NCBI GenBank assembly: GCA_905221615.1
Contig: CAJNDT010002779.1
Location: 471,001-535,000 of the forward strand
Reading direction: 5' to 3'
From: Symbiodinium sp. CCMP2592
Lineage: Eukaryota; Sar; Dinophyceae; Suessiales; Symbiodiniaceae
DNA length: 64,000 nt
This document shows positions 4,649 to 35,225 of the stretch, one piece after another; within the stretch, counting starts at the first letter, position 1, and the number at the start of each line of letters is the position of its first letter. The notes below the pieces were generated by a model that saw nothing but the letters and a program-made list of their open reading frames with translations, had not been told where the DNA came from and did not search any database. The position numbers and the translations under genes were made by a program.

Positions 4649-4705
4649 GAGCCGATGCACCCAGCAGACGTCCTCAGCCTCCTCCAGGAGGGTTTGGAGC
4701 GGTTT
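4649..4705 (+). CDS. beta-CA unit 1, tentative N-terminal helix exon
   Basis: The frame reads EPMHPADVLSLLQEGLERF, which resembles the opening helix of beta-CAs (pattern A-L-x-x-L-x-x-G-N-x-R-[FY]) and aligns with the [14 protein letters not shown] exon of unit 2. The acceptor is GAG|GAG. The proposed donor is GC at 4706 and is uncertain. The frame is also open upstream to an ATG at about 4578, which could be the real start. No targeting peptide was recognised. Confidence 0.45.
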
Positions 4706-7700
4706 GCTATTCCGTTCATGCTCGCTTCAGAAATTTCCAGTCTTGGGATTTAGGACTTACTCATGGGCCCCATAGTAGTTCCTTTCGGTAGAATTCTAAA
4801 TAAGAATCCCGAAAAGGAACGACTTTGCGGCCTTTAGGCCGAAGTTGAATATCAGGTTTGGCCTCGCGGGATTCGAGTTGAAGAAGCTTAAGTTGTGGAG
4901 TTGAACCGTTGAAGGGTCGACGTCTCGAGTCTCTTCATTTCAGCAATCGTTATGGTTATCTGATGTATACATATACATCTTATATACTATATTGTGCCCT
5001 ATCATCATAATCGGTTACATACACTGCTGTATTCTGATCTGCTTTATTATGTCATTGTCCACTGTATTTTGTTATGATGCGTCATGTCATGTTTTCTTAT
5101 GTTACCTCGTGTCATGTTGTAAACATTGTTAAAGTTCGTGTATTGTAGTGCACTGTGTTGTGCTGTGTTGTGTTGTACTGCGCTCATCTTTTGCTATACA
5201 TTATGCGTTTATATCGTTTAGCAATGTTGTGTCACGTTCTGCAATTGGGGATTACGTTATTTCATATCAAGGTAGGGATATGTGTATGTAGGTATGTATG
5301 CTTGCATACATATGTATGCATATAAGCGTACATACATACATACATACAGGCATGCACACATGTATGTACAATACACAAGGTATGTATGCTTGCATACATA
5401 TGTATGCATATTAGCGTACATACATACATACATACATACATACATACAGGCATGCACACATGCATGTACAATACACAGGTAGGTATACATGTATGTGTGT
5501 GTATATATATATGCATACATATATATATATATATATATATATGGGTACATATGTATATGTGCAGATGTGTAGGTCTGTACCTGTATACGCATCTGCATAT
5601 AATATGTGTTTGACTATGCGTATGTAGAAGTATATACATATGTATTTGATTGTATAGGTATATGTACATGTATATATGTGTGTATATAGTGTTGTATGTG
5701 TGTGTACACATGCGCTAGTTTCGTGAGGTTATGCACATTTTCTTTCATCAACAATAGCAAGATCCTGATTTCTCTCACGTCTTTGCCAGTTCCATAATCA
5801 GAAGCTATGTTTGAGCACCTCTTCGTGTCGGGTGGCGGCTTAGAGTTTTGCAGCTTCTCAGACTCGAATCATGCAACCCAAATGCTTGAATTGCAACCTT
5901 GAACTTCCAGACATAGTCCGGGTGCTTTCAAGAGTTTCGAGTTCAGAGGTTCCCCGGGTTTTGAGGTTCAATGTTCGCAGACCGAAGCATAAAGCATAGT
6001 ACCACTTTCGAAAAGACGGTTAACTCCGCCAAAGTACTTGTTCCGGGAATGGAAAGCGGCCAATCCTAACCCCCACCTTGGGCTCAAACCTTCAAGTCCG
6101 AAACCAAAAACCCAAAGCGAAAAACACAGCATACGCATTCCCCGGACCGACAGGAGGGAAATGACCGCTTTGTGAAGGGAACTTCTTTGGCAGTTCGCGC
6201 TTCGGCCACTGTAGGTTCTCCAGGTAGGGCCTTGGGACATTTTGTGTTTGCTCTTATTGGGCTTAAGAGGATCTTACCTACTAATATTTTCAAAGGCTTT
6301 GAAAGCACCTCCTTGTCTGAGTCGTAGTAGGGTATGCAGGGGTTAGGGTGTTATAAGGGGGCTAGTTTAGGAGTGTGACATTCTCAACAATGCTATCTTC
6401 TTGTAGCTTCTATACAAGTATACTAGGACATGCAACCCAAGCCTTGTCCGAGTTCGTAAAAGCCCGCTTGCAGTGATTAGGCTGTTCTTGCACCGTTGTT
6501 TGCTTTACACTGATTGTACGTCGTCAGGTAAAGGGAATTCATGTTTGCAAGTTACATGGTTTAAGTTTGGAGTGGATGCGCTGGTGATGTAGGCTTGTCG
6601 GGCTTAATCTTGAGGGCATTAGGTTTATATGTCTTACGTAATTTATGTGCTCACGATTTGAAATTTACATAGGGGGTTAGAGGCCGCCCACGTGCCGTGG
6701 GATTTAGATGTTAGGCTGCGTTTTCTGAGAAGCCCTGTCTATTTCCTTGCACCGAAGCATCGCACGTCGCGAGCCTCCGTCTTTTGCATAAGCCGGTTAC
6801 CTCTGGGTTTAGGGTTCAGGATTTAGGGTTTACGACTTAGGGTTTTAGGGGTTTAGGGTGAAGAGTTCCGAGCTTCGGGGCTTTATGCATTTTGTGAAGC
6901 AAGCCCCTGCAGCGGGTTTGACGAAATCTTTTTCGAGAGTGCGTCTGCGAAATGCGAACATCCAAGACTCGAAACCGAACCCCTAATATGTCATGGCTTG
7001 TCCTCATTTTAACGGCGTAGTATGCATATCTATGTATATGCACGACATTACTTTTGGACTCGCCACCACATTTCGGTACCTGAGGAAGAAACGATGTCGT
7101 CCGGCGGGAGATAGTGGATCTCAGCCAGTCGCCACATGCTGCCATCGTCGGCTTCTCGTCTCTGTCTCTACTTAGACATGGTTAGGGTTTAGGCTGCACT
7201 AAAAGATGATGAGACGATGTACGTGGCGGTAGACTGCCGGCTGCTAGAGCTCTTGGAAGAGAAGGGGGTGCAAAGGACAGTTCACATTCGGGTTTGCTTG
7301 AAGGTTTATGGGCTAGAACCTGGATCAAGCCTTTTCTGCTCCTGTCTCTAACGTCCTATTGCTACAAGCAGACGTTTCGAATGTCCTGTAGGACACCACA
7401 AACGATGCATTAGGATCTGTAGGGATTTTGGTTTTCGCGAATTTCAGGGTCTGTGCGTTTTTAGGGCTGCTTGGTTTAGCGCTAAGGACTTTGGTTTCGG
7501 CTGATCTTCGCCGCACCGGACTGTAGTTCTGAGTATAGTGATTACTTGGGGGGTCGGGGGACTTAGTAAGTAGTTAGTAAGTAGACTTATAAGTACTCTA
7601 AAAGGGACCGTAATTGGGGTTATGGTACTTATAAGTCCCTAAAACAGCCAGTTACTAAGTCCCCCGACCCTCCAAGTATGCACCCCGAAGCACCCGGCTC

Positions 7701-9435
7701 CTCCCCAACCCAACACCATGACCCATTCTTGACTCAGAGAACAATCCGCCCCCGCAACGATGAAAAGTTCCAAGAAACCACGGTGTATGTATCGGCTCTT
7801 TAATCCTTACCCTAAACTCCTGACCCCTAAACCCGAAACCCTAAAACGAACCAGGGGTCCAGGCTTCTCTGTTTGACCCGCCAAACCTGCAAAGGCCAAA
7901 TCCCCCTGTTTCGGCAGCCGATTTGGGGTTTGGGGATTAGGGGGTTGGGTTTCGGCAGCCTCAACTTCTGATCAGGGTCCCCGCCGCAATCCGGCCTCAA
8001 CGAACTTCGTACATATTCCAAAACCCTATATACTACCATACCATATGGGCGTTTCCGAACATGAAAGGTACCTTATTGTTGGGTCCCTAGAATTAGCATC
8101 CTGCTAAGTAGGGTACTGTATTGGGGTCCCATGTTTTGGGGTTCTCCCACATACTACCATAGACAACTATATGACCTAAGAGCCTTTGCAGCAGCCTATC
8201 TTACCCTCCAGAGAAGCAGACTGAATATCCTATACGAAGAAACAGCACTTTTCCTGAAGATGGAAACTCAGAGTCACCATGTCCTACGGTTGATGATACA
8301 AACCCAGCATTTCCCAGAATAAGGAATATACCGTTATTCCCATAGTTTAGGGTCCTTACGGTAATGCAGGATTCATATTTTCAACCGGTTGATGAGACAA
8401 ATCCTGTATTACCTTAAGGACCCTAGATGGGAGATATGGTCCAGTCCTTATGGGTAATGCAGGATGTATATCATCAACCGTAGAATCAACAATTGGGGAA
8501 GTCCCCAGCCGTATACACGCAAGGCCCTAAACCATATTCCTTCTTGTACTTGGTGAGGAAGCCCCATAAAACTTAAGCCATGCCCTAACCTTATGTTCTA
8601 AACTTCAAAACACTAATAATGGCCTCAAAATCCTAAACTCTAGAAGCCCTAAACCCTAAAGTCCTAACCCCTAAACCCTAAAGCCCTTAGATCCCTTGCA
8701 GAACGCTTAAAGCAACCTTTAGAGGACACCAAAGAAAGACGAAAACCTTGAGGCTCTAAAGCCCTAAACTCTCTGAGGTTGTTCCGACTGCCAGGCGCCT
8801 TTGGAATCGATTTTCGACTCCTTGCCAGGTCGCTGAGCTAAGTTGGTTAGGGGTTAGGTTTCACTTGCTTGTTTTGAGAAGGGGGTGAGTTTTTTTGGTG
8901 TTAGGGTTTACGGGGTTTCAGGGCTTGCGGGTTAGAGTTTAAGTTTTGCTGCCTTTGGTGTGCGCTCTCTCCCTTCGTTGAGGGACACGCCTTCTGCCAG
9001 AGGATTCCTTTTGGCGGTTTACGGTTTATAGGGTTTAGGGTTCAGGGTTTAGGGTTAGGGCCTGTTTCATTTGCCCAAGTCTGTTTGTCTTACATGGGTG
9101 AAGGGGTTTGCGGGATGTTAAGAGTCTAGGGGTAGAGTTTCGGGTTTCGAGGTGTTTTCTTGAGAGGTTGAGGGGAGGGGGGTGAGAGCCCCAACAGAAA
9201 CTTAACCCTAAACCCTAAAATCCCCAAAACACAAACCGTAAGCCCTCCCAACAGAAACTTGGGGATGAGTTCACCGCCGTCTTTTCTTGTTTGAAGGGCT
9301 TGGGGTCTACTACAGGGCCTTGAATAATTCCCGATTTTAATTGTAGTATAATGGGCCCAAAACCCTGTTGCAATTATCAAGGCCCCTACGCAGCTACAGG
9401 GGATGGTGACAGTGGCAAGCAGAGGCCTTGGCCGT

Positions 9436-9500
<65 letters not shown>

Positions 9501-11184
9501 CGTAGTAGTCGTAGTAGTAGTAGTAGTAGTAGTAGGAGTAGGTGTAGGAGTAGTAGGAGTAGTAGGAGTAGTAGGAGTAGTAGGAGTAGTAGGAGTAGTA
9601 GGAGTAGTAGGAGTAGTAGGAGTAGTAGGAGTAGTAGGAGTAGTAGGAGTAGTAGGAGTAGTAGGAGTAGTAGGAGTAAGAGTAAGAGTAAGAGTAAGAG
9701 TAAGAGTAAGAGTAAGAGTAAGAGTAAGAGTAACAGTAACAGTAACAGTAACAGTAGTAGTAGGAACAGGAACAGGAGGACGAGGAGTAGGCGAAGTTGC
9801 ATGGGTAGGAGTAAAAGTAGCAGCTTGGGAGTCGGAGCAGGAGGAGTAGTAGGAGTCCTAGCGTCAGTAGGAGCAGTAGTCGTCATGTTCGAAGTAGTGG
9901 CAGTGGTAGCAGTAGCAGCAGCAGCTGAAGAAGATAGCCGTAGCAATAGTAGTCGTCGTCGTAGTAGTGGTAGTAGTAGTCAGCTTCAAACCACACAGCG
10001 AAGGCGACATTTTCGCGTTCAAAAATGCCGGTAATACTTGCATTCATGATGCCTGGCTTGCACACAGCAGGTTCGGGATGGTTCGAGGGGGTGCAGCTAG
10101 TGCAGCCGCATATAATTACCTCGTCAGAAGGCAGACGAACATGCGGAACCCACGACACTTCATTTAGCAACTTCAGCTTGTCTTCCTACAGCTTGCGGAC
10201 TTATCCTGCACGGAGGTGTTCTAATCGGTAGACTGCTGCTGACCTGGATCAGGGCCGAAGTTCCGAGTTGCTCAGGGAAGCTGAGTACTTCGTCCCCGAA
10301 GTACCCATATGGGAGTTTCCGAAAATTAGGGGTACCTTATTTTGGGTCCTTATAATAAGGATCCTACTATTTAGGGTACTATATTAGGGTCCCCTATTTT
10401 CGGAAAGTCCATATTCGGACTTGGATTCATGGACCCTTGCAATGTAGATGCGGCCTTTCCTTCTGTTGCAAAGCTCTTGTTTGCAATATCTCTTGATGCC
10501 AATCCGAGTCTTAAGAACGACCTCCCCGCTCCAGTTCCACTGCTCCCGGAGGAGAAACCAAACTTTGCAGGACTGCACTTCCCACAAGGAGTTTCCCAGA
10601 TACGCAGGGACCTTTATATGGAGCCTTCAATAGTAAGGGATCCCTACTATAAGAGCCCTTGAATAAAACAGCCCCTAGACAGCTGAGATGTCATGCCGTC
10701 CCTTTGTGCTTTTCTTCTCTGATGTAAGATTGTGGCATTGCCCAAAGGCCCTAAGGTAGTTCCTTTTTGGAGTTCATATATAGAATCCTATAGGGTAATC
10801 CCAAAAAGGAACTACTTTGGGGCCTCTGGGTGATTGCAGTGGCAAGATTCGTGACATGATGATGTGGAAAATGCTTGTTATACTAAGCTGATACGTGGGC
10901 TTAGGCTGTTCAAGTTCTCACGAAATCAAAGCTGCTGTTTTGGTGCTCGTGACAGCCGAAGAGGGGCATAGCAGGACCGTCGATCAGCCAAAAGTAGTAG
11001 TAAGTAGACTTATAAGTACCTTAAAAGGGACCCTAATTGGGGCCATGGTACTTATAAGTCCCTAAAATAACCAGTTACTAAGTCCCCCGACCCTCCAAGT
11101 AGGCTAGCATCACTGGATTTCAGACGTGATCAACTTACCGTTGCTTAGTAGGGAATGGAGGAATGGGGTACAATTGTAGCTATA

Positions 11185-11244
<60 letters not shown>

Positions 11245-13082
11245 CACTACCACTACCACTACCACTACCACTACCACTACCACTACCACTACCACTACCA
11301 CTACCACTACCACTACCACTACCACTACCACTACCACTACCACTACCACTACCACTACCACCACCATTCTTCCATTCCCTACTAACCAAAGGTAAATCAA
11401 AACGGAGGTCATGGCACTGAAAGATCCTTGTCAAGACACTTGAATGCCAGCCTGTGTAACATGAACCCTACACACGAAGCGATAAACCCTGACACCTTAG
11501 CCTTAAACTCCAATCCGGTCTTCCGGGAGCTCTGCTTCGACTGAAGTCTACGTATATGAAGCTCTTGCTCCTTGCAACATGATAAAATCCATGACCTAAG
11601 ATAGCATAAACATCGTAGATCATGATAAAATATATGATCCTATGATCCTAAGGTAGCATAATCATGGTAGATTTGAAATCTATGCACTACATTCCCGAAG
11701 CCCGACATCCTGGACCTTGGTTGGATCCTTCACCCTCGGCCGTACTCCCGAAACCTTGGCGTTGACCCTCTTTGAGACTCAAGCGCTTAAATTCCCTAAT
11801 CGGGGTGAAAGGGTTTAAGGTTTGAGGAGTTTTATCCTAGTCAGAACTCCATCAAGCTGCTTCCTAAGTCCGCTGGTCCCGCAGATGGTAAGCCTCTATC
11901 AGACACAAAACGCTCCCAAGATCTTGATAAAGCTATAAAACTATCCTGATGACACCCTTGTCGAGACGTCAAGGCCGACGACCCCAAACCTAAACCTGAG
12001 GCCAATGGCAGCATGGTCGCCAGCTTGGAGTTTTGCACTGCGACTCGGCTGCCAGAGTGTGTCCAATCGCCTTTTTTCGGCAGGCCTGTGCTTACGGGGC
12101 TTAGGATTTGGAGGTGTCGTGCTTAGGAGGGAAGAGGTGGCGATTCAAGATTTATTGGCTCAGATGTTCCGCAGCTTTTGGGTTGTGTGCATTGGGGTTA
12201 TGTATTTCTAGCGGTTTGGGTTTAGACGGCTAACTGTGTCTCTATCTATCTGCCCATCTGTTTGTTGGTGTATCGCCGCTTCTGTGTACATCGAAGTAAC
12301 GTCGTGATTGCTGGAGGTCGCCTACGCCAGACAGTACTGCTTTACTTTAGAAGGGGCCCCCACCCTGTAATAGTGACTATAAGGGTTACATTAGGGCCCT
12401 ACTACATTCCTGTTATACCACGATTTCCAGGGTGGGGGCCCATTCTAATGTTTACTAGGTGTAGGCGAATCCTGTTTCACCCGAAGAATCCATGTGCTCA
12501 TGAATTTCCCAAAGGGTCCTAGGTACTGTTATTGGGGGATACTTCCCTAAATCATAATAGTACTTCCTAACATAGAAACCCTACATTCTACTATGAAGGT
12601 ACTTTGGACCCTTTTGGGTTTGTACATTGACCTTAAAGTAGTGCCTGTACAGGCATCTTAGGGGCTAATACGGTTGATGATATGATTCCTGCACTACCCT
12701 TAATAAGGATTATACCATGATTCCCAGAGTTTAGGGTCCTTAAGGTAATGCAGGATGTATATCATCAACCGTATATAATAATTGGGCACACTTGGGCACA
12801 TTTGTCCTTGGGAAAGGTGCATGGCCATTCACAGGGCATAAGGATGTCTAGGTTTGCCTTGGTTGGGGTCTTGAGTGGTTAGACGTGCACTTACCTCAGT
12901 TCTATCCGTCCGTACTCCCTTTGAGTGGATTTGACTTGTTTTGACTGTAGTTTGCTCCGAGTGACTAACCCGTGAGCCTAAACCCTAAAGCCAGAAACCT
13001 AAATCCACCTTCCCGGCAGGAGGAGCTTGGTTGTCGATTCATTCTCGTCCTCGGCCACCGACATTGTGGTGCCACTGAGCTG
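4649..13082 (+). CDS. beta-class carbonic anhydrase domain, unit 1 (split gene, exons inferred)
   Basis: Beta-CAs are zinc enzymes that interconvert CO2 and bicarbonate. Inferred exons are 4649-4705 and 7205-7291 (both tentative), then 8778-8828, 10004-10047, 12001-12039 and 13020-13082 (well supported). Joined, the last four keep an unbroken frame through the family's core in the right order: CSDCQAP with the first zinc Cys, then GDIFAFKNAGNTCIH, a GSMVASLEFCT helix, then FILVLGHRHCGATEL with the zinc His and second zinc Cys. The spacing between LEF and GH is 13 residues, as usual for the family. The Arg of the usual CxDxR motif is Gln here. The C-terminal third of the domain was not found. 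Introns of 1.0-2.0 kb between the supported exons hold microsatellites and hairpin elements. It could be the first domain of a two-domain protein continuing into the unit at 29.6 kb, or a separate gene. Cellular location is unknown because no targeting peptide is secure. Confidence 0.8.
4758..4836. repeat. MITE-like element, family C, just after a beta-CA exon
   Basis: GTAGTTCCTTTCGG and CCGAAAAGGAACGAC form the arms. It begins about 50 bp after the proposed exon end at 4705. Confidence 0.7.
4840..5275. other. A+T-rich intronic stretch
   Basis: TGT/GTT-rich low-complexity sequence with no credible frame. Confidence 0.5.
5276..5720. repeat. TATG/TACA microsatellite with duplicated block
   Basis: Alternating ATGTATG and CATACATA repeats. 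A block of about 105 bp at 5285-5385 is repeated at 5388-5490. Confidence 0.9.
5721..7204. other. unassigned intron-like region
   Basis: No recognisable gene. Weak minus-strand exon-like frames occur near 5790-5858 (ends GAC|GTGAGA), 6127-6234 (ends TGC|GTATGC) and 7079-7164 (ends TCAG|GTACCG). They are unnamed and could be chance. Confidence 0.4.
7205..7291 (+). CDS. beta-CA unit 1, tentative second exon
   Basis: The open frame includes LLELLEEKGVQRTVHIR. It resembles the helix and strand that precede the CSDSR motif in beta-CAs (pattern E-L-x-E-K-G-x-x-x-x-V-x-I). A GT follows at 7292, but the codon phase does not join cleanly to the exon at 8778, so a further small exon or a different donor is needed. 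Kept as tentative. Confidence 0.33.
7543..7678. repeat. MITE-like element, family B (full length)
   Basis: TACTTGGGGGGTCGGGGGAC at the left and GTCCCCCGACCCTCCAAGTA at the right are inverted ends. The interior holds ACTTATAAGTAC repeats. Confidence 0.9.
8043..8155. repeat. MITE-like element, family D (diverged)
   Basis: GGGCGTTTCCGAACATGAAA, then GGTACCTTATT, then a diverged right end. Related to 53173-53284. Confidence 0.55.
8285..8482. repeat. MITE-like element, family A, two copies head to tail
   Basis: TACGGTTGATGATA starts the first copy. TCAACCGGTTGATGA marks the junction, and CATCAACCGTA ends the second. Each has the conserved TAATGCAGGATT arm. Confidence 0.85.
8778..8828 (+). CDS. 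beta-CA unit 1 exon with first zinc Cys
   Basis: Acceptor CTCTGAG|GT and donor CCAG|GTCGCT give the 17-residue read CSDCQAPLESIFDSLPG when the split Gly codon is completed by the next exon. This is the CSDSRVPxExIFD signature of beta-CAs. Cys (8780-8782) and Asp are kept, while the Arg of the Asp-Arg dyad is Gln. The frame is closed by TGA immediately upstream of the acceptor, which fixes the exon start. Confidence 0.85.
9309..9391. repeat. MITE-like element, family E
   Basis: CAGGGCCTTGAATAATT and AATTATCAAGGCCCCTA are the inverted ends. Confidence 0.75.
9437..9985. repeat. AGT/AGG compound microsatellite in beta-CA intron
   Basis: AGTAGT, GAGTAGTAG, GAGTAA and AACAGT blocks run up to about 20 bp before the acceptor of the exon at 10004. 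Ser/Arg, Val and Leu frames are low-complexity artefacts. Confidence 0.95.
10004..10047 (+). CDS. beta-CA unit 1 exon GDIFAFKNAGNTCIH
   Basis: The acceptor GCGAAG|GC completes the Gly codon left by the exon ending at 8828. The exon encodes the RNAGNTCTH-type loop. Homology to the next exon places the end after the His codon, which implies a GA donor (10048). A GC donor at 10051 is the alternative and would add one Asp. The exon abuts the large AGT-type microsatellite upstream. Confidence 0.82.
10307..10415. repeat. MITE-like element, family D
   Basis: ATATGGGAGTTTCCGAAAAT and ATTTTCGGAAAGTCCATAT are near-perfect inverted ends. The interior has TCCTTATAATAAGGATCC. Confidence 0.85.
10740..10831. 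repeat. MITE-like element, family C
   Basis: GTAGTTCCTTTTTGG and CCAAAAAGGAACTAC arms, with GGCC outer flanks. Confidence 0.8.
10992..11101. repeat. MITE-like element, family B (left-truncated)
   Basis: Begins inside the left arm (AGTAAGTAGACTTATAAGTA) and keeps the complete right end CCCCCGACCCTCCAAGTA. Confidence 0.85.
11137..11393. repeat. hairpin element with an expanded (CTA)n/(CTACCA)n core
   Basis: TTAGTAGGGAATGGAGGAAT and ATTCTTCCATTCCCTACTAA flank about 190 bp of CTA and CTACCA repeats. The element at 24568-24654 has the same ends with a core of only about 20 bp of TAC-type repeat. Confidence 0.9.
12001..12039 (+). CDS. beta-CA unit 1 micro-exon (39 nt)
   Basis: Acceptor CCTGAG|GCC. 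The exon encodes ANGSMVASLEFCT, matching the THAEGSMVGSLEFCT segment of the family. The exact family spacing to the following GH motif requires the exon to stop before GCGACT, so a GC donor at 12040 is inferred. The reading frame itself stays open past this point, so the end rests on homology spacing. Confidence 0.83.
12347..12448. repeat. near-perfect hairpin element
   Basis: TTAGAAGGGGCCCCCACCCT and AGGGTGGGGGCCCATTCTAA are inverted ends around about 60 bp. No second copy was noticed. Confidence 0.8.
12669..12773. repeat. MITE-like element, family A
   Basis: TACGGTTGATGATATGATTC and TAATGCAGGATG..CATCAACCGTA arms. Confidence 0.9.
13020..13082 (+). CDS. beta-CA unit 1 exon with zinc His and second zinc Cys
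   Basis: Acceptor GGCAG|GAG and donor CTG|GTTTAA. It encodes EELGCRFILVLGHRHCGATE plus Leu, the strand and GHxxCG motif of beta-CAs. The zinc His codon is at 13056-13058 and the Cys codon at 13065-13067. Phase 0 at both ends fits the preceding exon. Confidence 0.88.
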
Positions 13083-13334: not shown

Positions 13335-13426
13335 TACCCAGAGGCCCCAAAGTGGTTCCTTTTTGGGAGTACCCTATGGGATTATATATGAGCCCCAAAA
13401 AGGAACTACTTTGGGGCCTTTGGGTA
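13335..13426. repeat. MITE-like element, family C (reference copy)
   Basis: TACCCAGAGGCCCCAAAGTG and CTTTGGGGCCTTTGGGTA are inverted ends of a hairpin of about 92 bp. Confidence 0.9.
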
Positions 13427-16744: not shown

Positions 16745-16880
16745 TACTTGGGGGGTCGGGGGACTTAGCAAGTAGTTAGTAAGTAGACTTATAAGTACCC
16801 TAACAGGGACCCTAATTGGGGTTATGGTACTTATAAGTCCCTAAAATAACCAGTTACTAAGTCCCCCGACCCTCCAAGTA
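16745..16880. repeat. MITE-like element, family B
   Basis: Full-length copy, very close to 7543-7678 and 25930-26065. Confidence 0.9.
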
Positions 16881-20227: not shown

Positions 20228-20524
20228 TAAATACCTGTACTATTTGGGGGGTTCCTGATTATAGCTCTAGTATAATTGCCCCCAAAACCCTATTCTAATT
20301 ATTAAGGCCCCTATATTCAGGGACGCGAAGGATTCGCGAGAAGGTGCATGGCACGCGGTGTTCCCGTCGCCTGAGCAGACCTTGATCACATTTGCAGTTT
20401 CGGTTAAGAGAGGGGCTTAAATCATTACCTTATACTCTTTTGGGGGTTCCTTGTTATAAGTGTAGACTGGTCAACCCCAAAACATCCCCAAAACCCTATT
20501 CTAATTTCCAAGGCCCCTATATTA
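20228..20524. repeat. two family E elements in tandem
   Basis: Both end in CCTATTCTAATT..AAGGCCCCTATA. The first is 20228-20314 and the second 20407-20524. Confidence 0.75.
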
Positions 20525-20945: not shown

Positions 20946-21044
20946 CCCTACCTCCTACCAGGTCAACGTGTTTCAGACGCTTGAGCTCCTCTTGAGATTC
21001 AGCGAGACGATTCGGCAGTGACTTGTCTCAGGCTTGCGTTTGGG

Positions 21045-22339: not shown

Positions 22340-22580
22340 CCTACCCCAAGCCTTGAGCCTAAACCCCAAAACTCCTAAACCCTAAACCCTCAACCGTCTG
22401 GACCCTTATCCCTAAACTGTAAACCCTCATCCCTAAACTCTAAACCCTAAACCCTAGACCCTAACCCCTAAACCCTAAACCCTCAACTCTCTAGACCCTA
22501 ATCCCTAAACAACCCTAATCCCTAAATTCTCTAAACCCTAAACTCTCTAAACTCCTCAAACCCTAAACCCCAATCCCCGA
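22340..22580 (+). repeat. telomere-like CCCTAAA tract
   Basis: About 240 bp of CCCTAAAC, CCCTCAAC and CCCTAATC variants. Confidence 0.9.
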
Positions 22581-22939
22581 GCTCTGTTTGTGTGGCCGAA
22601 AGCAGCACGGTCCAAGGAACGTTCGCAGCGGCCAAGTCGAGCTACAGGCCCCAGCCGTGTGAGCTTATCTTGTTATTATTACGAATGAGATTTGTTATTC
22701 TTACGAAGCTAAAAAACCCAAAACCGTCAGTGTGAGCGTCTGTTTTGCGACTGTTGTCATTGATCTTATCGTCACTGTTATACTGTTATACACCGAGTTG
22801 CTACACTTAAAACTGCTTCAAACAAACACACACTAGACATAAGACCATGTGGATTTAAGGCAAGGCTCCGCTAGAGTCGCTAGAGTTGAGTGTCTCGATG
22901 CTAGGGCATGAATATTTGTGTATTTGTTAATATTATGCG

Positions 22940-23579: not shown

Positions 23580-23825
23580 TAGACCCTATAGAAAACCCTA
23601 AACCCTAAAACCCTAAAGCCCTAAACCTTATAATTACCCTAAACCCTATACCCTAAGCCCCAACACCAACAACGATAGAAGGCTGCCATTTTCGACGAAG
23701 CCTCCGGCAAGGCCAGGATTCGAGTCACGATATGCTTAGGGGGTTTGGGGTTTAGGGGTTTAGGGTTTGGGGTTTAGGGGTTTAGGGTTTAGGGGTTTAG
23801 GGTGTAGGGGTTTAGGGTTTAGGAA
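23580..23825. repeat. telomere-like tracts, opposite orientations
   Basis: CCCTAAA at 23580-23660 and TTTAGGG at 23738-23825 are separated by about 80 bp, a loose inverted pair. Confidence 0.85.
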
Positions 23826-24942: not shown

Positions 24943-25929
24943 TGGGGTCTAGGGACCCGGAAGGAATAAAGGGAAGACGTGGGCGGAAAGGTGGGGAATG
25001 ATGGTTTAAAGCAGAGAAGCAGCATTGTTTGTTCAGTGCGGGTATATAGGTAGTATTAGCATCCCTGGTAGTTCCCCATAGTCCTATAGTGTATATAGTA
25101 TGCGTCAAAAGCCTACTAAGAATTCGGAGGTTAGCGCTGATAGGAGTGTTAAGGTTGAAGCCTTACAGTAGAACCCTCTGAAGCCTTTAGAATTCAGGAG
25201 TGCGTCTTTGGACACAAGCCACGCCGCAAAACAAAACAAAACTGAACCTCTAAACCCTTAACCCGAAACCCTAAACCCCTGACCCTAAACTCTGAACCCT
25301 CTGAGCCTTCGCAAGTGCCAGGTGGAGTTTCTTGGGACCCATCCAATGCAGGAGGAACTCCTCGAGTCGAGCACGCCATGGGCTCATCATCTTAGGGTTC
25401 CGTTTAAAGGGGCCCATAAGGATTACTATAAGGGCTATTATGGGGGTTTAGTATAAGGGCCTTAATATGCTAGGAGGCCCAGTAGTACCCTTATTCCGTT
25501 TTTGTAGCCCTAGGTTGCTTATTTAGGTACCCAATACCGAGAAGGGAGCCCTTTTTATTCCTGGGTGTCTGGGCATCCTAGTCATTCGGTGTCACGGTTT
25601 AGGGTCAGTGTTTAGGGCTTAGGGGTTACCTTAACCCGGAAGAACCTACATTTTTCAGGACTTATATTAGGAAATCATACTAATCCTAAAAGGTAGGTTG
25701 TTCAGTGTTAAGGTAGGATTTAGAAGGAATCCTGTGTCTGGGTTTAGGGCATTTAGGGGTTAGGCTTGGGGGCTTCGGGTTTAGATTTTAGGAGTTTTGG
25801 GCTTAGGCTTAGTCATTTTTTGTCTGGGTGCAGGGGCTTAGGGCATGTAGGGGCTAGTGGTGAGGGCTTCCGGTTTAGTTTTTGTAGTAGCTGAAAGCTT
25901 AGGGCTTCACCACTTATAGGATACGGTTT

Positions 25930-26065
25930 TACTTGGGCGGTCGGGGCACTTAGCAAGTAGTTAGTAAGTAGACTTATAAGTACCCTAAAAGGGACCCTAA
26001 TTGGGGTTATGGTACTTATAAGTCCCTAAAGTAACCAATTACTAAGTCCCCCGACCCTCCAAGTA
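25930..26065. repeat. MITE-like element, family B
   Basis: Full-length copy with TACTTGGGCGGTCGGGGCAC left end. Confidence 0.9.
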
Positions 26066-26659
26066 GGGTGTAGGGTTGAGAAGTTCGCCGCTTAGGGTTT
26101 CTTGGGTTGTTAGGCTTTTGGAGGTTTCGGCTGAGGTGCTGAGGCCTACATGGGCTTATGACATGGAGACTGGACTGGACTTGGGGGAAAGGTGTGGTTA
26201 CAGCACTTCGAGGTATTCTCAGGACTTTCGGATGCGTGGTGCATAAACCCTAAACCCCTAAACCGCGTTTCATGTGATGAGGGCTTTACCGGCGCTTTGG
26301 CTTCATGGGCTTGGGAGCCTGTCTCGGGGCAACCATTCATTGAGTTTCGGCCAGCCTGGTGCTCTGAACCGTACAATATTCCATAGCAGACTTTTTGTCC
26401 TTGCTATCAACTTAATCATTAATGTGGAATGTAACAATGGTAAAATTCAAGTCGCCAGCTTTCAGTCTGCAACCTCAGGTATCGAGTCAGAGTTTCGCGC
26501 AGCCTCGCACCTAGACCTCCGTGTACTCATGCAGTATATGCTTTTGTCCTTGAAGTAGTCTCTATATAGGTACTTTAGGGTGAATATTTGCTGTAATTGT
26601 AGGTGCATGGACCCTCAGGTCACTAAACCGAGAGCACAGCGAAATATCCCTGACCACTG

Positions 26660-26960
26660 GAGGGCATCCTAAAACCCTAAACGTCCCGAAATCATAAACC
26701 CCAAGCCCTAAACCCCTAAACCCTAAACCCCCAAATCCTAAACCATAAACCCATAAACCCTAAACCCCTAAACCCTAAACCCCCAAATCCTAAACCCTAA
26801 ACCCTAAACCCATAAACCCTAAACCCCTAAACCCTAAACCCCCAAATCCTAAACCCTAAACCCATAAACCCTAAACCCCTAAACCCTAAACCCCCAAATC
26901 CTAAACCCGAAACCCTAAACCCATAAACCCCTAAACCCCTAAACCCTAAACCCCCCATTC
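26660..26960 (+). repeat. higher-order telomere-like array
   Basis: A compound unit of about 50-60 bp (CCCATAAACCCTAAACCCCT followed by AAACCCTAAACCCCCAAATC) is repeated about five times, so the heptamers are organised in a second-level tandem repeat. Confidence 0.88.
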
Positions 26961-28769: not shown

Positions 28770-29621
28770 GAACAAAACATGTTATGGCAGTTTAAGATTG
28801 GGGCAGCCGTGTTTTGGCAGGGTGTTTTGGTATTCTAACGGGATTTGGGGGTTTAGGGTTTTTGGAAATCTGGGCTCTGGAGCACTATAGACCTGCATGT
28901 TCCTGAAAGGACGTTTTGAAATAGGTCACCCAGGTTGCTTCAAATCCCAGTATACGACTTTCATAAGGACCGCGTCAAGCGGGCTTTGTCAGGACTTACC
29001 TTTGGTTGGGTTGCCCTACTTTGCATGCGTTTCGGACGCTAAGCCTCGAACAGGTTGTCCAACCGAAAGTACTACAATTTAGTGTCTGGGATGGACCTCG
29101 GCAATGTGGAGCTGATTTTAAAGTTGGGGGTTGCCTGTGGCTTTTGACCTTCACCGGGCGTTGGGTTTCGGACGAAGCAGCAAGGGCAGTTGGTACAACA
29201 CCTGATTCGTTGACGTTATACAGTTGTACATTTCAGCAGTGGCGCGAGCATCTGGGCAACGACAACGACACGGAGGACACTGTTTATCTGGTTGTTACTG
29301 TCATGACGATGATGATCATGATGGCGACGATGACGGTGATGGTGAGGTTGCCCAATTTTACAGTGCTGATGTGGCGGCTGTGGCCATGGCAGCTTTATTT
29401 CAAGCAAGACCGTGCACAGTTTCATATCGAGTGTAAACGACTGCAGCATGAACATAAGTAGCCACCTGTCTGATAGCGCACATCCCATTTACGATACATA
29501 CCACACCCAAGATTCTACTGCATGCGTGCGCATACGCGCGTCAGGTTGCATCCTTGCAGGCCTACATGGCTACATGCATGCATCACTTGCATGCCCAGAA
29601 CGTCAAAATCTAAGCTATCAG
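28770..29621. other. region upstream of beta-CA unit 2
   Basis: A long + frame (29006-29461) includes WLLTFTGRWVSDEAARA but also a Met/Thr-rich low-complexity stretch. No domain was recognised. It could hold the 5' part of the unit-2 gene. Confidence 0.35.
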
Positions 29622-29684
29622 GAGGCCATCGAAACACTGAGACTTGGCAACGCGCGCTATGTCGACGCTCGGCCAGCTTCGGAA
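29622..29684 (+). CDS. beta-CA unit 2 N-terminal helix exon
   Basis: Acceptor CTATCAG|GAG and donor GAA|GTGCGG. It encodes [20 protein letters not shown] plus Glu, matching the EALERLxxGNxRFV opening of beta-CAs. The frame is open further upstream (to about 29412), so the true 5' boundary could be earlier. Confidence 0.75.
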
Positions 29685-32600
29685 GTGCGGGTTCTTGGGT
29701 TGCGCCTGCTTGGCAGGAGTTTAAGTTTATATATGAGTAGTTGTCAAAATTAGGGTCCCTTTTCGGGTAACCTAAAAAATAGGTGCCGTATTAGAATAAG
29801 GACTGACAACCACCCATATTGAGGCGTCCATTCAGGCCCGGAATTTGGGTTTCGGTAGGCTTCAGTATGTGTAGATATGCTAAGAAACCATCGAGTGTCC
29901 TTGAGCAAGTGTAGATCTAACGTGTTGGGTGTAAGTTGTGCGACGTGGAGGTAGATGAGTATTTGGGTTGTTGCCGGCTTTGGTGAATTTGGACTTGTCT
30001 GTGCTACAGATGGCCGCTCGTTTGTTTGACTAATGCTTGTGACGCACAGTTTGTTAGAAGTGTAATGCATTGCTGACACTATGACCGATCTTAGCACGGC
30101 TGCCAATGAGGGGATCAATTCTTTCAGTGTTGTATTTCGGTTCCTAAACCTTAAACCCTAAACCCCTAAACCCCAAACCCCGATTGTGACAGTGGTGGCA
30201 CCTGAGCCTGGGCAGTGAGCCATTAAGCAGTTCGGAGGATCACCGTACGACGCGATGACGAGTGTAGAAGGTTCGGGCTTGGTTGATTCTTGGTTGTGGG
30301 TGTACATGAGCATCTTTTGCTATGAGCACCCCCTAGCTGCCGAGTTCCTAGCCCAGCCCCGAGAAAGCACATGTACACCCGGTCCGCATGGGGTGCAGGG
30401 TTTAGGTTTAGGGTGCAGGGCTCAGGGGTTCGTAGGGTTTGGGCCTTGATTTCTTCTATGACCAATTATTTGGGTTGATCTTTGTTTTTTCAAGAGGCCA
30501 CTCTGGAAGGCATACCCAAATCCAGCATTTTTCAAAGCATCGAAGCCCTCGATATCTCAAACCCTGAGCCCTTAAACCCCAAGCCGCTGGACCCTTAAAA
30601 TTATAACCCTAGACTCTAAACCCTTCAACTTTGCACCTTCCAACCCTAAACCCATAACTCCTACACCTGTAGACTCCTTAAAAACCATACGACCTCTCAA
30701 AACCCGCACTCCCTAAACCGCTAATCCCGGTGAGCCCCAAACCCTAAACCACCGAATCCGAGAACCGCCCAACCCTAAATGTTCGAAAGCCTCAGAAGCC
30801 TAAAACCGTCAAGCCCTTGGCCCTCGAAACCCTTAAAGCTTAGGCGAAGCTCCCTAAACCCTTGAAGCCCCAAAACCCACAAACCCCTAAGACCTTAATC
30901 CTTAAATCCCTGCTATACTCCCTAAAACTCTTAAAGAAGTCTGAATAAGCCATGAAACATTAACCCTACTTAACCCTCAGCCGCCATGATGGACATCAGG
31001 CCGGAGTGTCGGAAAACACCCAGGTTGGGATTCAGGAAGTGTGGCGGTCTCCCTAAAGGTTTTGAGGATTGGAGTTTAGGGTTTTGGGGGAGTAGAGTTT
31101 AGGCTTTTGGTTTTGGGGGATTAGAGTTTAGGGTTTGGGGCTTTAAGGAGTAGGGTTTATGGTTGTAGGACCCATTCTATTGCTGAGGGATGTTATGCAC
31201 GGTTGCATACCGGCTTATAAATTAGGCTTGGTACTGGGGCCTCTATTGCCGGAATTTGTATAAAGGCCTTGTCTTATCAGGTAAGATGTATTCGCGCGGT
31301 ATGTACATGTCTAGTGTCTCCTTTATACACCTGCATGGCGTTCGTTCAAGTCTTCCTTTGACCCTACAATCCTAAACCCAGATCCCAATACCCCTTAATT
31401 AACGTCAACGTATACCTTAAATTATAGTAGGATCCCTAATATGATTTAAGTATATTCCTTAATTACGGGGGTGGTATTGGGTTCTCTGGGAACCCGGTGT
31501 GATCCCGGAAGACGGGAAGTAGCTTTCGGGAGGTTGAGCCTCTCTGTAACCGTGAGCCCGAAAAGCCTTCGACCCGGCTCCCAAAACCTATGCTTTTGGG
31601 TACTGCCCCCACTCAGTAACAGTTGGATAATCTTCGTAATATGGTTTTATGAGGACGTCTATAGTAGCACTATTCTGGACTGTTACTGTATGGGGGCCGT
31701 ACCCAACCTATGCCATATATTCTGCTTAAGACGGGCTTTGGAGTCTTGGCTCAGTGTGTTGAGGAAGTTGTAGCATACTTTTACGAGAATACACCCCAAA
31801 ACCCTAGCCTAACTATGAAGGCCCCTAGTTTCACCCCCATCCAAACACTCAAGAAACCTTCAAAGAGCCCCAAAAGGATCCCAATCTGTGTTAAGGCCGT
31901 TATACCCCTTGACACCCTGTAGGAGACCTTTTTGATTCCTTTCAAGGCCCTTTTACAAGAAGCACTATTGAAAGTTCTTAGTAATCTTATTTTCGATTCC
32001 CATCATTACCTTCGCTTTTATTGTGAGCGATTGTGCTGCAAGTTTGTCATTGCGAGGTAACACTTTACATCTTTATGGGTACTTAAACCGAACTGAGATT
32101 ACGAACTCATTTTTCAATACTACCCCAACCATGAACTAGAGAAAGGCCCCATAGTAGCTCCTTTTTGGGATTACCTTATGGGATTCTATATACGCGCCCC
32201 GAAAAGGAACTACTTTGGGGCCTTTGGGTAGACAATACTTAAATAAAACTCCAAGCCAGACCCCCGGGAGGATCCCAAAACCAGATCCCTTAATGGGGAT
32301 TCCCATCAAGTACCCTTAGTAGTATAGGGCCCAAAAAATTGGGGGATCTACTTTCGGGATCATCCCGGGGTAAAATCAAACCCTAAACCCTAAGCCCCAA
32401 GACCCTAAAGCCCTAAACCCTAACCCCAAAGTGCACAGGCCAAGCCTGGCCCTTAAAGGAACCCTATAGATTCCTTTAAAGGAGCCCTATAGATCCTCCC
32501 GGGGCTCTGGGAAAGTGCGCAGGCCAAGCCTGGCCGGACCGCCATCGCGAATCCCTTCTGCTCAGTCCTGGCATGCGCGGACGTGCGAGTGCCAATGCGA

Positions 32601-34387
32601 GAACCGTGGTGGGTTTAAAGGGAACTCCAGAAAGTTGGAATATGGTTTCAGGGTAGGATACTTTATAAAGGGTTTAGGATAATCATATTTCAACTTTCTG
32701 GCTTTTACTTTAAGCTTTAGGGCCTTTAGCTACTTTAGGGTTTAGGATCTAAGGTTTAGGATCTTGGGGAACATAGAGGGTCTGTAGGATTTAGGGTTTC
32801 AGGGCTATAATAGGGTCTCCAGGATTTAGGTTTTACGGGTTATAATAGGGTCTTTAGGATTTAGGGTATAGGATCCTTAGGTCCTTAGCTACTTTAGCTA
32901 GGATGCCCAGTAGTACCCTTATTTAAGGGTTTCGGGTTTAAGGTTTGGGGTCTCTGGGATTTAGGGTTTAGGATCTTGGGGATCAGGGTCTTTAGGATTT
33001 CAGCTTTAGGGTCTTTAGGATTTAGGGTTTAGGATCTTGGGGTTTAGGGTTCAGGGGATCTAAGGTTTAGGATCTTGGGGAATATAGGATTGTTTGCAAT
33101 TCCCTGGTCGGAGAACTTCGGGCTGTAAGGTGGGCGTTTTCGGGTGTATCAGGTACGTGCGCGATTTTGGACTCAAGGTTCGGAACTTCCAAAGCAGCAG
33201 CTCTGCCGTCGTACCTCATTGTTCCCGGGTCCAGGTCCTACATTACATCAGGCTAAGGTGTCCTTCTTTGACGACTTTCGGTTCATCTAAGACAGCCGAA
33301 CGGCTCAAACCCTAAAGCCAAACTTTTAGGTAAGCTTAGAGCGAATACTTCGCATAAAAGGGTGACCTGACGTATCCCTTATCTGGGCTCCGACTGTTGT
33401 GGACAGAATGCGATTTCCCACAAAATAGTTCGCTCGTTGTTGCAGAGAGAGGAACGACGGCAGTCTACAGCTTTGGTCCGGAAACGTCGTTCCTGAGTTC
33501 GACTACTTTTTCCTGCATTGTACGACCCTCACGATAACACATGCTGTCTTTGACAGAAGCAGCAAGCAAGATGTCGGTAGAGCCAGCAAATTGCCACAAA
33601 GCACGCCCTCGTCCGTCCTTGAATACAGCCTGCCAGTAAGCCCGGACACCATACGGTCAAATGCAGTGGAAGTCGTGTCGTGTCCTCAGGTGCCGGTAGA
33701 TACCGTCTTTGACATGAAGCCTGGTGACATTTTCGTCATGCGAAATGCCGCCAAGCCTCTTTTGGATCTGCGAGTTGGGTTGTGGCTGCTGCTTCTGGCC
33801 CTGACATAGAAATCCCGGTTATATCCGGGTTTGAGCGCAGTAAAGGCAATGAACTGTGTCTGGACTTCTTGCGATTGGCGTGCAGCGTGGGTTTCTGTGA
33901 AGGTTCACTCCTGGGACTTGGCAGTTTCTTCCTTAGAGTTGCAACACCATCCTGTGTAATTACTGAGCTTGTAGCAAGAGTGGTCCTGTAGCTATACTGA
34001 TCATGACAGGCATACTGGTCCGTGCAAAAACAGCCTCAGACGACAGTGCTGGTCCCAGGACCAAGCAATGTAACAGTCATGGTAATCACACGACTCCACG
34101 ACAGTCATTTCTTGCTGAATTGGCCCTTGTCGTAGTTCAGGATTGAGAGCAGAACTTGTTAACTGTTGCGGCCGTCGTTCGTGAGTGAGCCTCACAAGAC
34201 ATATAGGGACTATGCGGCGAAGACATGACCCGTGTTCGTCGAAGCAGTTGATGATCTGCATCTGCTTCCCGCTTATGTTTGCAAGGTAACAGGGACAAAG
34301 ATACATGCCTCATTTATACGTACATATATACATATACATATACATTTTCATATACATACACATATACATATACATATACATATACGT

Positions 34388-34424
<37 letters not shown>

Positions 34425-34470
34425 CCCTAAACCCTGAAACCTAAACCCTAAACCCTCTCTCTCTCTCTAC

Positions 34471-34505
<35 letters not shown>

Positions 34506-35225
34506 TGTATATACCTATGTACACTTGTGCACGTCATGCCGTGGGCCACGTAGCAGAGCCTCCGCCCTTAAACTCTAAGCCCTATATACCCCAGGTGCTG
34601 GGAACCCCCCAAAAAACTCCCTAAGCCCTACACCCTACACCCTAAACCCAAAACCCAACCCTAAACCCTTATAGATCCCTTATAGAACCCTTAAAGGAAC
34701 CCCTATGACATATACATATGTATATATGTATATTTATTTATTTATCTATTGATTTGTTTATATTCCTTAAACCCAAAGCCCTACAGCCCAGGCAGGCAAC
34801 ACATGTACCCATGCAGCCGGCAGCATCATGAGCAGCCTGGAATTCAGCGAGCCATGGCTGAAAGTCATAAGGTACGGGAGTTTCCGAAAATTAGGGGTAC
34901 CCTAGGGCTCCTTTAAAGGGTTATAAGACTACTATAAGGGTTCCTTTAAAGGGCTCTACAAGGGGTTTAGAGTTTCCGAGAATCAGGGGTCATTGATTGG
35001 GGTCCCTTATAATAAGGACTATATTAGGGTGCATCGGAACTAAAATGAATCACGAGATCTACAGGCATCTTAGGTTTTATAAAATTGTCTAAGGCTTTAA
35101 ACTCGTTCTTTGCACTCGTTCTTTGGGTTGCTATGATTCGTACGTAGCTGTCAAGGCTATGACTACTAGAGACTATGGGCATCACGATTGTGGTGGCCAT
35201 TGCTGTGCCCAGCAGAAGCAGCAAA
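29622..35225 (+). CDS. beta-class carbonic anhydrase domain, unit 2 (split gene, exons inferred)
   Basis: A second beta-CA catalytic domain. Inferred exons are 29622-29684, 32523-32588, 33690-33746, 34792-34863 and 35156-35225, with a possible further exon at 41186-41358. The first four are whole-codon exons (63, 66, 57 and 72 nt) with phase 0 at both ends, and all five acceptors read AG|G. Joined, they give the family order: GNARYV helix, VLACADVR (Cys 32574-32576, Asp 32580-32582, Arg 32586-32588), [36 protein letters not shown], and YGHHDCGG (His 35180-35182, Cys 35189-35191). The active-site Cys, Asp, Arg, His and Cys are therefore all present. Spacing from LEF to GH is 13 residues, as in unit 1. 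About 15 residues before the 32.5-kb exon and the C-terminal domain are not confidently located. Introns of 0.3-2.8 kb are filled with telomere-like repeat and hairpin elements. Confidence 0.83.
29685..31377. other. beta-CA unit 2 intron, first part
   Basis: Degenerate CCCTAAA sequence dominates 30560-30960. No further beta-CA exon was found, although about 15 residues of the domain may lie here. Confidence 0.4.
31378..31490. repeat. MITE-like element, family F
   Basis: CCCAGATCCCAATACCCCTT and GGTATTGGGTTCTCTGGGA ends. Confidence 0.85.
32142..32230. repeat. MITE-like element, family C
   Basis: GGCCCCATAGTAGCTCCTTT and GGAACTACTTTGGGGCCTTT arms. Confidence 0.85.
32257..32375. repeat. hairpin element, family G
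   Basis: AGACCCCCGGGAGGATCC and GGATCATCCCGGGG arms. Related to 59225-59330 and 63785-63850. Confidence 0.75.
32428..32535. repeat. 24-bp direct repeat spanning a splice acceptor
   Basis: AAAGTGC[A/G]CAGGCCAAGCC..TGGCC occurs at 32428-32451 and 32512-32535. The second copy contains the acceptor and first bases of the exon at 32523. Repeat-type sequence lies between them. Confidence 0.8.
32523..32588 (+). CDS. beta-CA unit 2 exon with first zinc Cys and Asp-Arg dyad
   Basis: Acceptor GCGCAG|GCC and donor CGA|GTGCCA. It ends in [13 protein letters not shown], the CxDxR motif with Cys, Asp and Arg all kept. It joins in phase 0 to VPVDTVFD in the next exon. A near-identical copy of the acceptor and first exon bases lies 84 bp upstream, at 32428-32451. 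Confidence 0.88.
32740..33085 (-). repeat. telomere-like degenerate TTTAGG tract
   Basis: Many GGATTTAGGGTTTAGGATCT units. Confidence 0.8.
33690..33746 (+). CDS. beta-CA unit 2 exon [19 protein letters not shown]
   Basis: Acceptor CCTCAG|GTG. The 19 codons match the VPxDxIFDxxPGDIFVxRN stretch of the family almost residue for residue. The next exon starts with AlaGlyAsn, so the junction falls after AAT and the intron opens with GCCGCC, a GC donor. Confidence 0.92.
34310..34515. repeat. ATACAT/ATAT microsatellites split by CCCTAAA
   Basis: An ATACATAT block and a TATATA block with a short telomere-like insert and a CTCTCTCT run between them. Confidence 0.9.
34792..34863 (+). CDS. beta-CA unit 2 exon [18 protein letters not shown]
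   Basis: Acceptor GCCCAG|GCA and donor AAA|GTCATA. The 24 codons cover [17 protein letters not shown] and end in SEPWLK. Both boundaries are phase 0. The exon sits between telomere-like and ATA-rich sequence and a hairpin element starting a few bases after its end. Confidence 0.92.
35156..35225 (+). CDS. beta-CA unit 2 exon with zinc His and second zinc Cys
   Basis: Acceptor GTCAAG|GCT. It encodes [17 protein letters not shown] and then Gln/Lys residues. GHHDCGG is the GHxxCGG zinc motif. The donor is probably GT at 35226 (phase 1); a GC at 35210 is an alternative. Confidence 0.78.

What the first reader, a model, noticed from the sequence alone, without database searches (positions are those of the whole stretch)
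4649..35225. Two beta-carbonic anhydrase domains hidden as micro-exons across 30 kb
No ORF in the window is long enough to show a gene, yet exons of 39-72 nt assemble on the + strand into two beta-CA catalytic cores in the correct residue order, with the zinc Cys, His and Cys present in both. The frame is continuous over the last four exons of unit 1 and the last four of unit 2. Gene prediction would easily miss this. Seen: motifs and frame continuity. Known: beta-CA signatures CxDxR and GHxxCG. Inferred: the exon joins.
Basis: partly seen in the sequence, partly recalled or inferred. Interest (0 to 1): 0.9.

Follow-up and report, generated by a model that had tools for sequence, protein, structure and literature searches.

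The report
Two-domain dinoflagellate carbonic anhydrase gene
Tiny exons scattered over 39 kb do spell two related carbonic anhydrase domains in what looks like a dinoflagellate genome; that kind of enzyme and gene structure is known, but each of the two domains seems to have lost a different catalytic residue, which is unusual.

Summary
The finding is real, with three corrections. A spliced-profile alignment finds two beta-carbonic anhydrase (Pro_CA) domains on the + strand, unit 1 at 4646-25336 (last three exons tentative, one helix missing) and unit 2 at 29560-43347, in 19 exons of 15-160 nt. A profile of prokaryote proteins only scores 53.6 and 52.0 there; minus strand 19.1, reversed 19.6, 40 shuffles at most 23.9. 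Pfam Pro_CA: 6e-22 and 5e-26. The 16 placed introns start GC (8), GA (6) or GT (2) and all end AG|G (two boundaries hand-set), the published dinoflagellate signature (PMC10666404).

Corrections:
2. So the sites are not intact in both: unit 2 has Ser for the second zinc Cys; unit 1 apparently has Gln for the Arg of CxDxR.

One protein or two tandem genes: not settled. The kind is known (two-domain beta-CA of Porphyridium). Interest modest.

The parts
4646..4687 (+). unit 1 exon, EEPMHPADVLSLLQ (N-terminal helix); followed by GA donor
   Evidence: spliced DP; block score 19.8 against 16.7 for the best control hit: weak alone
6154..6196 (+). unit 1 exon, EGNDRFVKGTSLAV; start follows CAG|GAGGG, a 5-nt repeat of the preceding donor side
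   Evidence: spliced DP; junction repeat
7085..7150 (+). unit 1 exon, (R)RNDVVRREIVDLSQSPHAAIV(G)
8778..8828 (+). unit 1 exon, (G)CSDCQAPLESIFDSLP(G): first zinc Cys and catalytic Asp present, dyad Arg replaced by Gln. CAG|GCG at 8792-8797 is itself an AG|G acceptor at the place where unit 2 has an intron, so a start at 8795 is not excluded
   Evidence: the acceptor-like CAG|GCG is read from the sequence
10004..10047 (+). unit 1 exon, (G)DIFAFKNAGNTCIH; donor uncertain (10048 or 10060)
12001..12039 (+). unit 1 exon, ANGSMVASLEFCT
   Evidence: profile with unit 2 only; not picked by the prokaryote-only profile
13020..13082 (+). unit 1 exon, EELGCRFILVLGHRHCGATEL: zinc His and second zinc Cys intact
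   Evidence: block score 47.8
20962..21014 (+). unit 1 exon, VNVFQTLELLLRFSETI(R), counterpart of unit 2 NVLQTMEIVLRH
   Evidence: BLOSUM62 score 52 against maximum 44 in 100 shuffles of the region. 3' boundary set by hand: the DP had donor GT at 21018, mine is GC at 21015
22617..22647 (+). unit 1 exon, (R)NVRSGQVELQ (tentative)
   Evidence: two low-penalty runs only; its own score is 24, third in the region and below the shuffle mean of 26.7
23682..23711 (+). unit 1 exon, AAIFDEASGK (tentative)
   Evidence: two low-penalty runs only; not among the five best of the region
25322..25336 (+). unit 1 exon, VEFLG..., counterpart of unit 2 VEFLG (tentative; the frame runs on)
   Evidence: two low-penalty runs only; best of its region (25) but 95 of 100 shuffles reach that
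29560..29675 (+). unit 2 exon, ...[38 protein letters not shown]; 5' boundary uncertain
32523..32588 (+). unit 2 exon, [22 protein letters not shown]: CxDxR motif intact; 5' boundary uncertain (32493, 32523 or 32553 in different runs)
33690..33746 (+). unit 2 exon, [19 protein letters not shown]; followed by GC donor
   Evidence: block score 43.5
34792..34848 (+). unit 2 exon, [19 protein letters not shown]; followed by GA donor
   Evidence: profile with unit 1 only
41186..41345 (+). unit 2 exon, VGSFVLFPVFGELPNYIKHLATRNLMTGVGLARLSLCAVKLNVLQTMEIVLRH
   Evidence: its 3' part from 41291 also with the profile holding unit 1 only
42388..42435 (+). unit 2 exon, (S)RPIRELAQSGRVQVQ(G)
   Evidence: profile with unit 1 only
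43304..43347 (+). unit 2 exon, (G)AVYHMESGCVEFLG, C-terminal strand
   Evidence: profile with unit 1 only; block score 26.9 against 13.8 for the best control hit

Best explanation
The window lies in the nuclear genome of a dinoflagellate (inferred; nearest published statistics are those of Polarella glacialis). It carries, on the + strand from 4646 to 43347, two sister beta-class carbonic anhydrase domains arising from a duplication and cut into about 19 small exons by introns of median 1.1 kb with GC, GA or GT donors and AG|G acceptors. Most likely (about 0.65) both lie on one transcript and make a single two-domain protein, as in the red alga Porphyridium. Proposed working (inferred): the two domains pair inside one chain, because beta-CA active sites are completed by residues of a partner subunit. 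Unit 1 keeps all three zinc ligands and the Asp, so it is the likelier seat of residual or modified CO2/HCO3- chemistry despite the apparent loss of the dyad Arg. Unit 2, which has lost the second zinc Cys, is mainly the structural partner that completes unit 1's pocket. Shown by computation: homology, order, frame, splice signals, the substitutions in the DNA. Not shown: transcription, splicing, single chain, activity.
For: Prokaryote-only profile 53.6 / 52.0 against at most 23.9 in the controls. Pfam Pro_CA 6e-22 and 5.3e-26, unit 2 covering profile positions 3-155 of 156. Best solved relative of both is 1ddz, a 496-residue carbonic anhydrase chain in which two stretches match: 3.2e-26 and 2.2e-26. 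Splice signals, programme's own picks in the standard runs: 12 of 13 acceptors AG|G; first tally 15 of 16, P 1.3e-6 against the window's own rate, with one donor mis-set by me; final 16 of 16, donors GC 8, GA 6, GT 2. These match published dinoflagellate figures. No stop in 1089 coding nt (the method penalises stops). Unit 1 and unit 2 share 64 of 150 aligned residues, against fractions of at most 0.375 and 0.348 with 88 prokaryote sequences, and group together with support 99/98 in a tree of 50 rows. Identity by codon position 0.56/0.67/0.33, as protein-level constraint would leave. Exon GC 55% against 47% for the window.
Against: No RNA data. Unit 1's middle helix exon(s), between 13082 and 20962, were not found; its last three exons are weak alone, and the standard-penalty run chose another piece (26115-26174) instead of them. 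No start codon, linker exon or stop was established, so a single chain is not shown. In unit 1 the Gln codon is followed by GCG, so CAG|GCG could be an acceptor at the very place where unit 2 has an intron; then a CxDxR exon would have been missed and the Arg not lost. The bootstrap of the tree had not settled, unit 1 is a long branch, and no eukaryote was in it. Neither domain keeps the full catalytic set, which argues against two ordinary active enzymes. Pairing inside one chain is an analogy, not a test.
Confidence: 0.72

Rival explanations
1. Two separate tandem beta-CA genes, each with one domain, rather than one two-domain gene.
For: 4.2 kb lies between the last (tentative) unit 1 exon and the first unit 2 exon, 8.5 kb from the last firm one. 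After VEFLG the frames run 39 codons (unit 1) and 32 codons (unit 2) to a stop, which could be real ends. The frame of the unit 2 first exon is open upstream to 29370 and holds an in-frame ATG. Tandem genes, there single-exon ones, are reported for P. glacialis (title of PMC7245778).
Against: As modelled, the unit 2 first exon starts after an AG with two bases of a split codon and its first ATG is out of frame (sequence), which suits an internal exon; weak, since its 5' boundary is uncertain. 4.2 kb is short against the mean intergenic length of 21.6 kb published for P. glacialis, if that genome is the right yardstick.
Confidence: 0.3
2. One or both units are decaying pseudogenes, which would explain the lost catalytic residues.
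For: R to Q in unit 1 and C to S in unit 2 at conserved sites; missing helix exon in unit 1.
Against: No stop or frameshift in 19 exons (partly selected for by the method); regular splice signals; codon-position identity 0.56/0.67/0.33; well-matched C-terminal unit 2 exons.
Confidence: 0.15
3. The substitutions are artefacts: a sequencing error, or the true motif exon lies elsewhere by another splice choice (in unit 1 an exon starting at 8795 with a missed CxDxR exon before it; in unit 2 an earlier donor).
For: CAG|GCG in unit 1 is a possible acceptor at the position of a unit 2 intron; the unit 2 exon donor is ambiguous; no reads were available.
Against: Unit 1 GCSDC sits in exact register before APLESIF; a hand estimate puts that at about 1 in 100,000 by chance. 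The pattern Cx(D/S)(S/A)R has no + strand hit between 7150 and 8795. The unit 2 exon matches on beyond the Ser (GHTHSGCREL against GHRHCGATEL). TCA is two changes from either Cys codon. One narrow pattern for an AG|G-started Cys-Gly-Ala exon found none between 35901 and 41186.
Confidence: 0.1
4. Chance assembly of short motifs in 64 kb.
For: Exons are short and introns free, so spurious pieces do arise (for example 1393-1488 and 40448-40501).
Against: Scores 2.2 times the best of 40 shuffles and above both strand controls, with a profile that held no window row.
Confidence: 0.01

Closest known systems
Porphyridium purpureum two-domain beta-carbonic anhydrase (PDB 1ddz; that 1ddz is the Porphyridium enzyme is recalled)
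   Same: Best solved relative of both units; two repeats in one 496-residue chain, both aligned.
   Different: In the printed alignments its repeats read CADSR ... GHY(G/A)CGG, intact in both; the window units read CSDCQ ... GHRHCG and CADVR ... GHTHSG. One chain is not shown here.
Coccomyxa beta-CA (PDB 3ucj; PMC3230598, passages seen)
   Same: Same domain; Cys-47, Asp-49, Arg-51 and Cys-106 in the site, whose channel is completed by Gln-38', Phe-66' and Tyr-88' of the second monomer.
   Different: Single domain; site intact in the solved enzyme.
Carboxysomal CsoSCA (recalled, not compared here)
   Same: Recalled as a beta-CA-related protein with one working and one defunct domain.
   Different: Recalled as a different, highly diverged family; no comparison was run.
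Long peridinin-chlorophyll proteins of Symbiodinium (PMC4201569, abstract and outline seen)
   Same: Dinoflagellate gene made by duplication and fusion of a short gene, with introns gained after the fusion.
   Different: A different protein, studied there with genomic and cDNA sequences.

Membership tests
beta-carbonic anhydrase (Pro_CA, PF00484) | Match above the curated cut-off (25.7 bits) | tested here: met
   79.0 bits (unit 1, profile positions 2-69) and 92.2 bits (unit 2, positions 3-155 of 156)
beta-carbonic anhydrase (Pro_CA, PF00484) | Three zinc ligands Cys, His, Cys | tested here: not met
   Met in unit 1 (C, H, C); not met in unit 2 (C, H, S). Unit 2 is filed as a Pro_CA homologue, not as a proven carbonic anhydrase
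beta-carbonic anhydrase (Pro_CA, PF00484) | Asp-Arg dyad of CxDxR | tested here: not met
   Unit 2 met (CADVR); unit 1 not met as modelled (CSDCQ)
beta-carbonic anhydrase (Pro_CA, PF00484) | CO2 hydration activity | not testable with these tools
   needs expression and assay
two-domain (Porphyridium-type) beta-CA | Two homologous domains in order on one strand | tested here: met
two-domain (Porphyridium-type) beta-CA | Both domains in one polypeptide | tested here: inconclusive
   no linker exon, start or stop established (one search shows only the open frames); no RNA
dinoflagellate nuclear spliceosomal introns | AG|G acceptors and GC/GA/GT donors | tested here: met
   12 of 13 in the standard runs, 15 of 16 in the first tally, 16 of 16 with donors 8/6/2 after two boundaries were hand-set; published 79.7-97.1% AGG in the six genomes other than Amoebophrya
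introner-derived introns | Inverted repeats of 8-20 nt and direct repeats of 3-5 nt near both ends | tested here: not met
   0 of 16 introns had an exact inverted repeat of 8 or more near the ends (best 7); 2 of 16 had a 5-nt direct repeat at the junction itself; direct repeats elsewhere near the ends were not tested (boundaries of the first tally)

The most novel reading that the evidence does not exclude
A single dinoflagellate protein in which the beta-CA catalytic set has been divided between two fused domains: unit 1 keeps the complete zinc site but not the dyad Arg, unit 2 keeps the Asp-Arg dyad but not the complete zinc site. The pair would work as an obligate internal heterodimer, with an altered activity or as a bicarbonate/CO2 sensor rather than a fast hydratase.
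Probability: 0.15. Interest if true: 0.6.

Novelty: new member of a known kind. Interest (0 to 1): 0.33.

Why it matters
If transcribed, it adds a tandem beta-CA with asymmetric loss of catalytic residues to the carbon-acquisition enzymes of dinoflagellates. It is also a compact case for dating intron gain: 1 of 7 unit 2 intron positions coincides exactly with a unit 1 position (read by eye, and resting on an ambiguous donor), two more lie 3 and 1 nt away, although the domains are sisters. And it shows that a protein profile can recover the core of a micro-exon gene from raw DNA of this kind.

Tried and rejected
Fragments that the DP chained and I rejected include 1393-1488 (low complexity), 40448-40501, 7364-7417, 10131-10142, 15294-15314, 19138-19161, 20323-20364 and 26115-26174. 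A CxDxR-like hit at 4469-4516 (AQKPFLSFVTCASARN, block score 18.9) was considered as a relic of a third unit and set aside: no neighbouring exons. Unit 1's helix exon was sought and not found. No third unit was found. Introner origin: not supported. No spliced-leader relic at up to 3 mismatches, no tRNA, no Rfam match at gathering threshold.

Homologue searches: the alignment of the two cores found no relative in genome or viral contigs, probably because its patterns were too specific. Prokaryote relatives came through a plasmid search and an alignment of plasmid proteins. All 88 references were taken by a CxDSR motif (script), so the C, D and R columns are circular as a yardstick; the H and second-Cys columns are not. 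Paper searches for a dinoflagellate two-domain beta-CA listed none by title and start of abstract (rows seen: 25 of 45, 15 of 45, 4 of 4, 12 of 33); the library is partial, so this is no claim of absence.

Full report
WHAT IS THERE. The window (47.1% GC) has no tRNA, no Rfam match at gathering threshold and no clear long coding ORF; many of the 34 ORFs of 120 aa or more are translations of simple repeats.

CONTROL AGAINST CHANCE. I fetched 88 prokaryote beta-CAs (8 plasmid records; 80 genome loci, two of them archaeal by title). I wrote a profile-to-DNA Viterbi that allows introns with GT, GC or GA donors and AG acceptors in all phases. With a profile of prokaryote rows only (columns of an alignment made together with the units), the two regions score 53.6 and 52.0. 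The minus strand scores 19.1, the reversed window 19.6, and 40 dinucleotide shuffles of half-windows have mean 19.2, SD 1.7 and maximum 23.9. Part of the 53.6 is a spurious low-complexity piece at 1393-1488. Adding one unit to the profile raises the other: unit 2's region scores 81.0 with unit 1 in the profile, and unit 1's region 72.7 with unit 2 in it. The profile with unit 1, which had no C-terminal part from the window, still found the unit 2 C-terminal exons 41291, 42390 and 43306. With both units in the profile the scores are 140.0 and 256.0, against 23.6 (minus strand) and 21.6 (reversed); these are circular for the cores.

GENE MODEL. The exons are in the parts list. Unit 2 covers Pro_CA profile positions 3-155 of 156, E 5.3e-26; unit 1 matches positions 2-69, E 6e-22. 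Unit 1's C-terminal exon 20962-21014 scores 52 against the unit 2 stretch CAVKLNVLQTMEIVLRHSRPIR, with 0 of 100 shuffles reaching it (maximum 44). The last three unit 1 exons (22617, 23682, 25322) appear only in two low-penalty runs; the standard run chose 26115-26174 instead, and they do not beat shuffles singly. I call them tentative. The helix exon between 13082 and 20962 is missing. Two boundaries were set by hand after the first tally (32523, 21014).

SPLICE SIGNALS. The programme demanded only AG. In its own picks (the two standard runs) 12 of 13 acceptors are followed by G. In the first tally 15 of 16 were, P 1.3e-6 against the window's rate of 0.346, with one donor mis-set by me. After the two adjustments 16 of 16 are, with donors GC 8, GA 6, GT 2, median intron 1138 nt and mean 1594 nt. 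Published figures (PMC10666404, section 5 read) give AGG acceptors in 79.7-97.1% of introns in six dinoflagellate genomes, Amoebophrya (56.5%) apart. P. glacialis has GC 45.9%, mean intron 1408 nt and donors GC 52.7 / GT 28.8 / GA 18.5. A. gibbosum has GC 47.1% but GA donors only 0.1%; P. cordatum has GC 59.7%. Hence: a dinoflagellate, closest to Polarella in these statistics. This is inference; no record of the source was seen.

CATALYTIC RESIDUES. In the alignment with the 88 references the first zinc Cys is C, Asp is D and His is H in both units. The dyad Arg is Q in unit 1 and R in unit 2 (R in 88 of 88 references, all chosen by a motif containing that R, so circular). The second zinc Cys is C in unit 1 and S in unit 2 (C in 86 of 88; one gap, one L). 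The Gln of the QxP motif is Q in unit 1 and falls in a gap in unit 2. The Arg serves to orient the Asp, and the second monomer supplies Gln-38', Phe-66' and Tyr-88' to the site (PMC3230598, passages). So as modelled neither domain carries the full set, and the losses differ.

DOUBTS ABOUT THE LOSSES. In unit 1 the Gln codon and the next codon read CAG|GCG, a possible AG|G acceptor at the position where unit 2 has an intron. If the exon starts there, a CxDxR exon has been missed. I favour the Gln reading because GCSDC stands in exact register (hand estimate of chance about 1 in 100,000) and no Cx(D/S)(S/A)R hit lies between 7150 and 8795. In unit 2 I looked for another Cys-bearing exon between 35901 and 41186 with one narrow pattern and found none.

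ORIGIN. Units 1 and 2 share 64 of 150 aligned residues; the best prokaryote identities are 0.375 and 0.348. In a tree of 50 rows (48 of the 88 references plus the two units) they are sisters with support 99/98; the bootstrap had not settled, unit 1 is a long branch and no eukaryote was included. Identity by codon position is 0.56, 0.67 and 0.33: third positions are near random while the first two are held, which is what protein-level selection leaves. Of 7 unit 2 introns and 10 unit 1 intron positions, one coincides exactly by eye (after ...EL, where the unit 2 donor is itself ambiguous) and two lie 3 and 1 nt apart. Most introns therefore look gained or moved after the duplication, but the inverted-repeat test for introners was met by 0 of 16.

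ONE GENE OR TWO. Unit 1's last (tentative) exon and unit 2's first are 4.2 kb apart. Neither a stop plus spliced leader nor a linker exon could be placed. I put one two-domain protein at about 0.65, by analogy with 1ddz (best PDB relative of both) and from the weak hint that the unit 2 first exon looks internal.

VERDICT. The kind is known: two-domain beta-CA, and dinoflagellate small exons with GC/GA donors. The asymmetric catalytic losses are the part worth a second look, and they need RNA and orthologues first.

Noticed in passing
window 7538-7683, 16745-16880, 25930-26065, 52581-52716: Four similar hairpins (arms 59-64 nt, 77-82% complementary, beginning about TACTTGGGGGGTCGGGGGACTTAG) scattered over the window, like a MITE family (which shows 25 of 143 pairs). 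A second family with arms close to CCAAAGTAGTTCCTTTT was seen by eye near 13345, 27130 and 32140.
   Followed up: partly
window 22358-22570, 26672-26954, 52943-53102, 58049-58209 and others: Many interstitial plant-type telomere-like repeats (CCCTAAA / TTTAGGG) along the window.
   Followed up: no
window 4469-4516: AQKPFLSFVTCASARN, a beta-CA CxDxR-like stretch just upstream of unit 1 (block score 18.9 against at most 15.8 in the controls shown), with no neighbouring exons; chance or a relic.
   Followed up: partly
window 4688/6154 and 32589/33690: Two introns start with the same five bases as the exon that follows them (GAGGG and GTGCC), as a target-site duplication would leave; the other 14 show 0-2.
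   Followed up: partly
window 43348-64000: No further Pro_CA unit was seen downstream of unit 2; what else the + strand codes for there was not examined.
   Followed up: no
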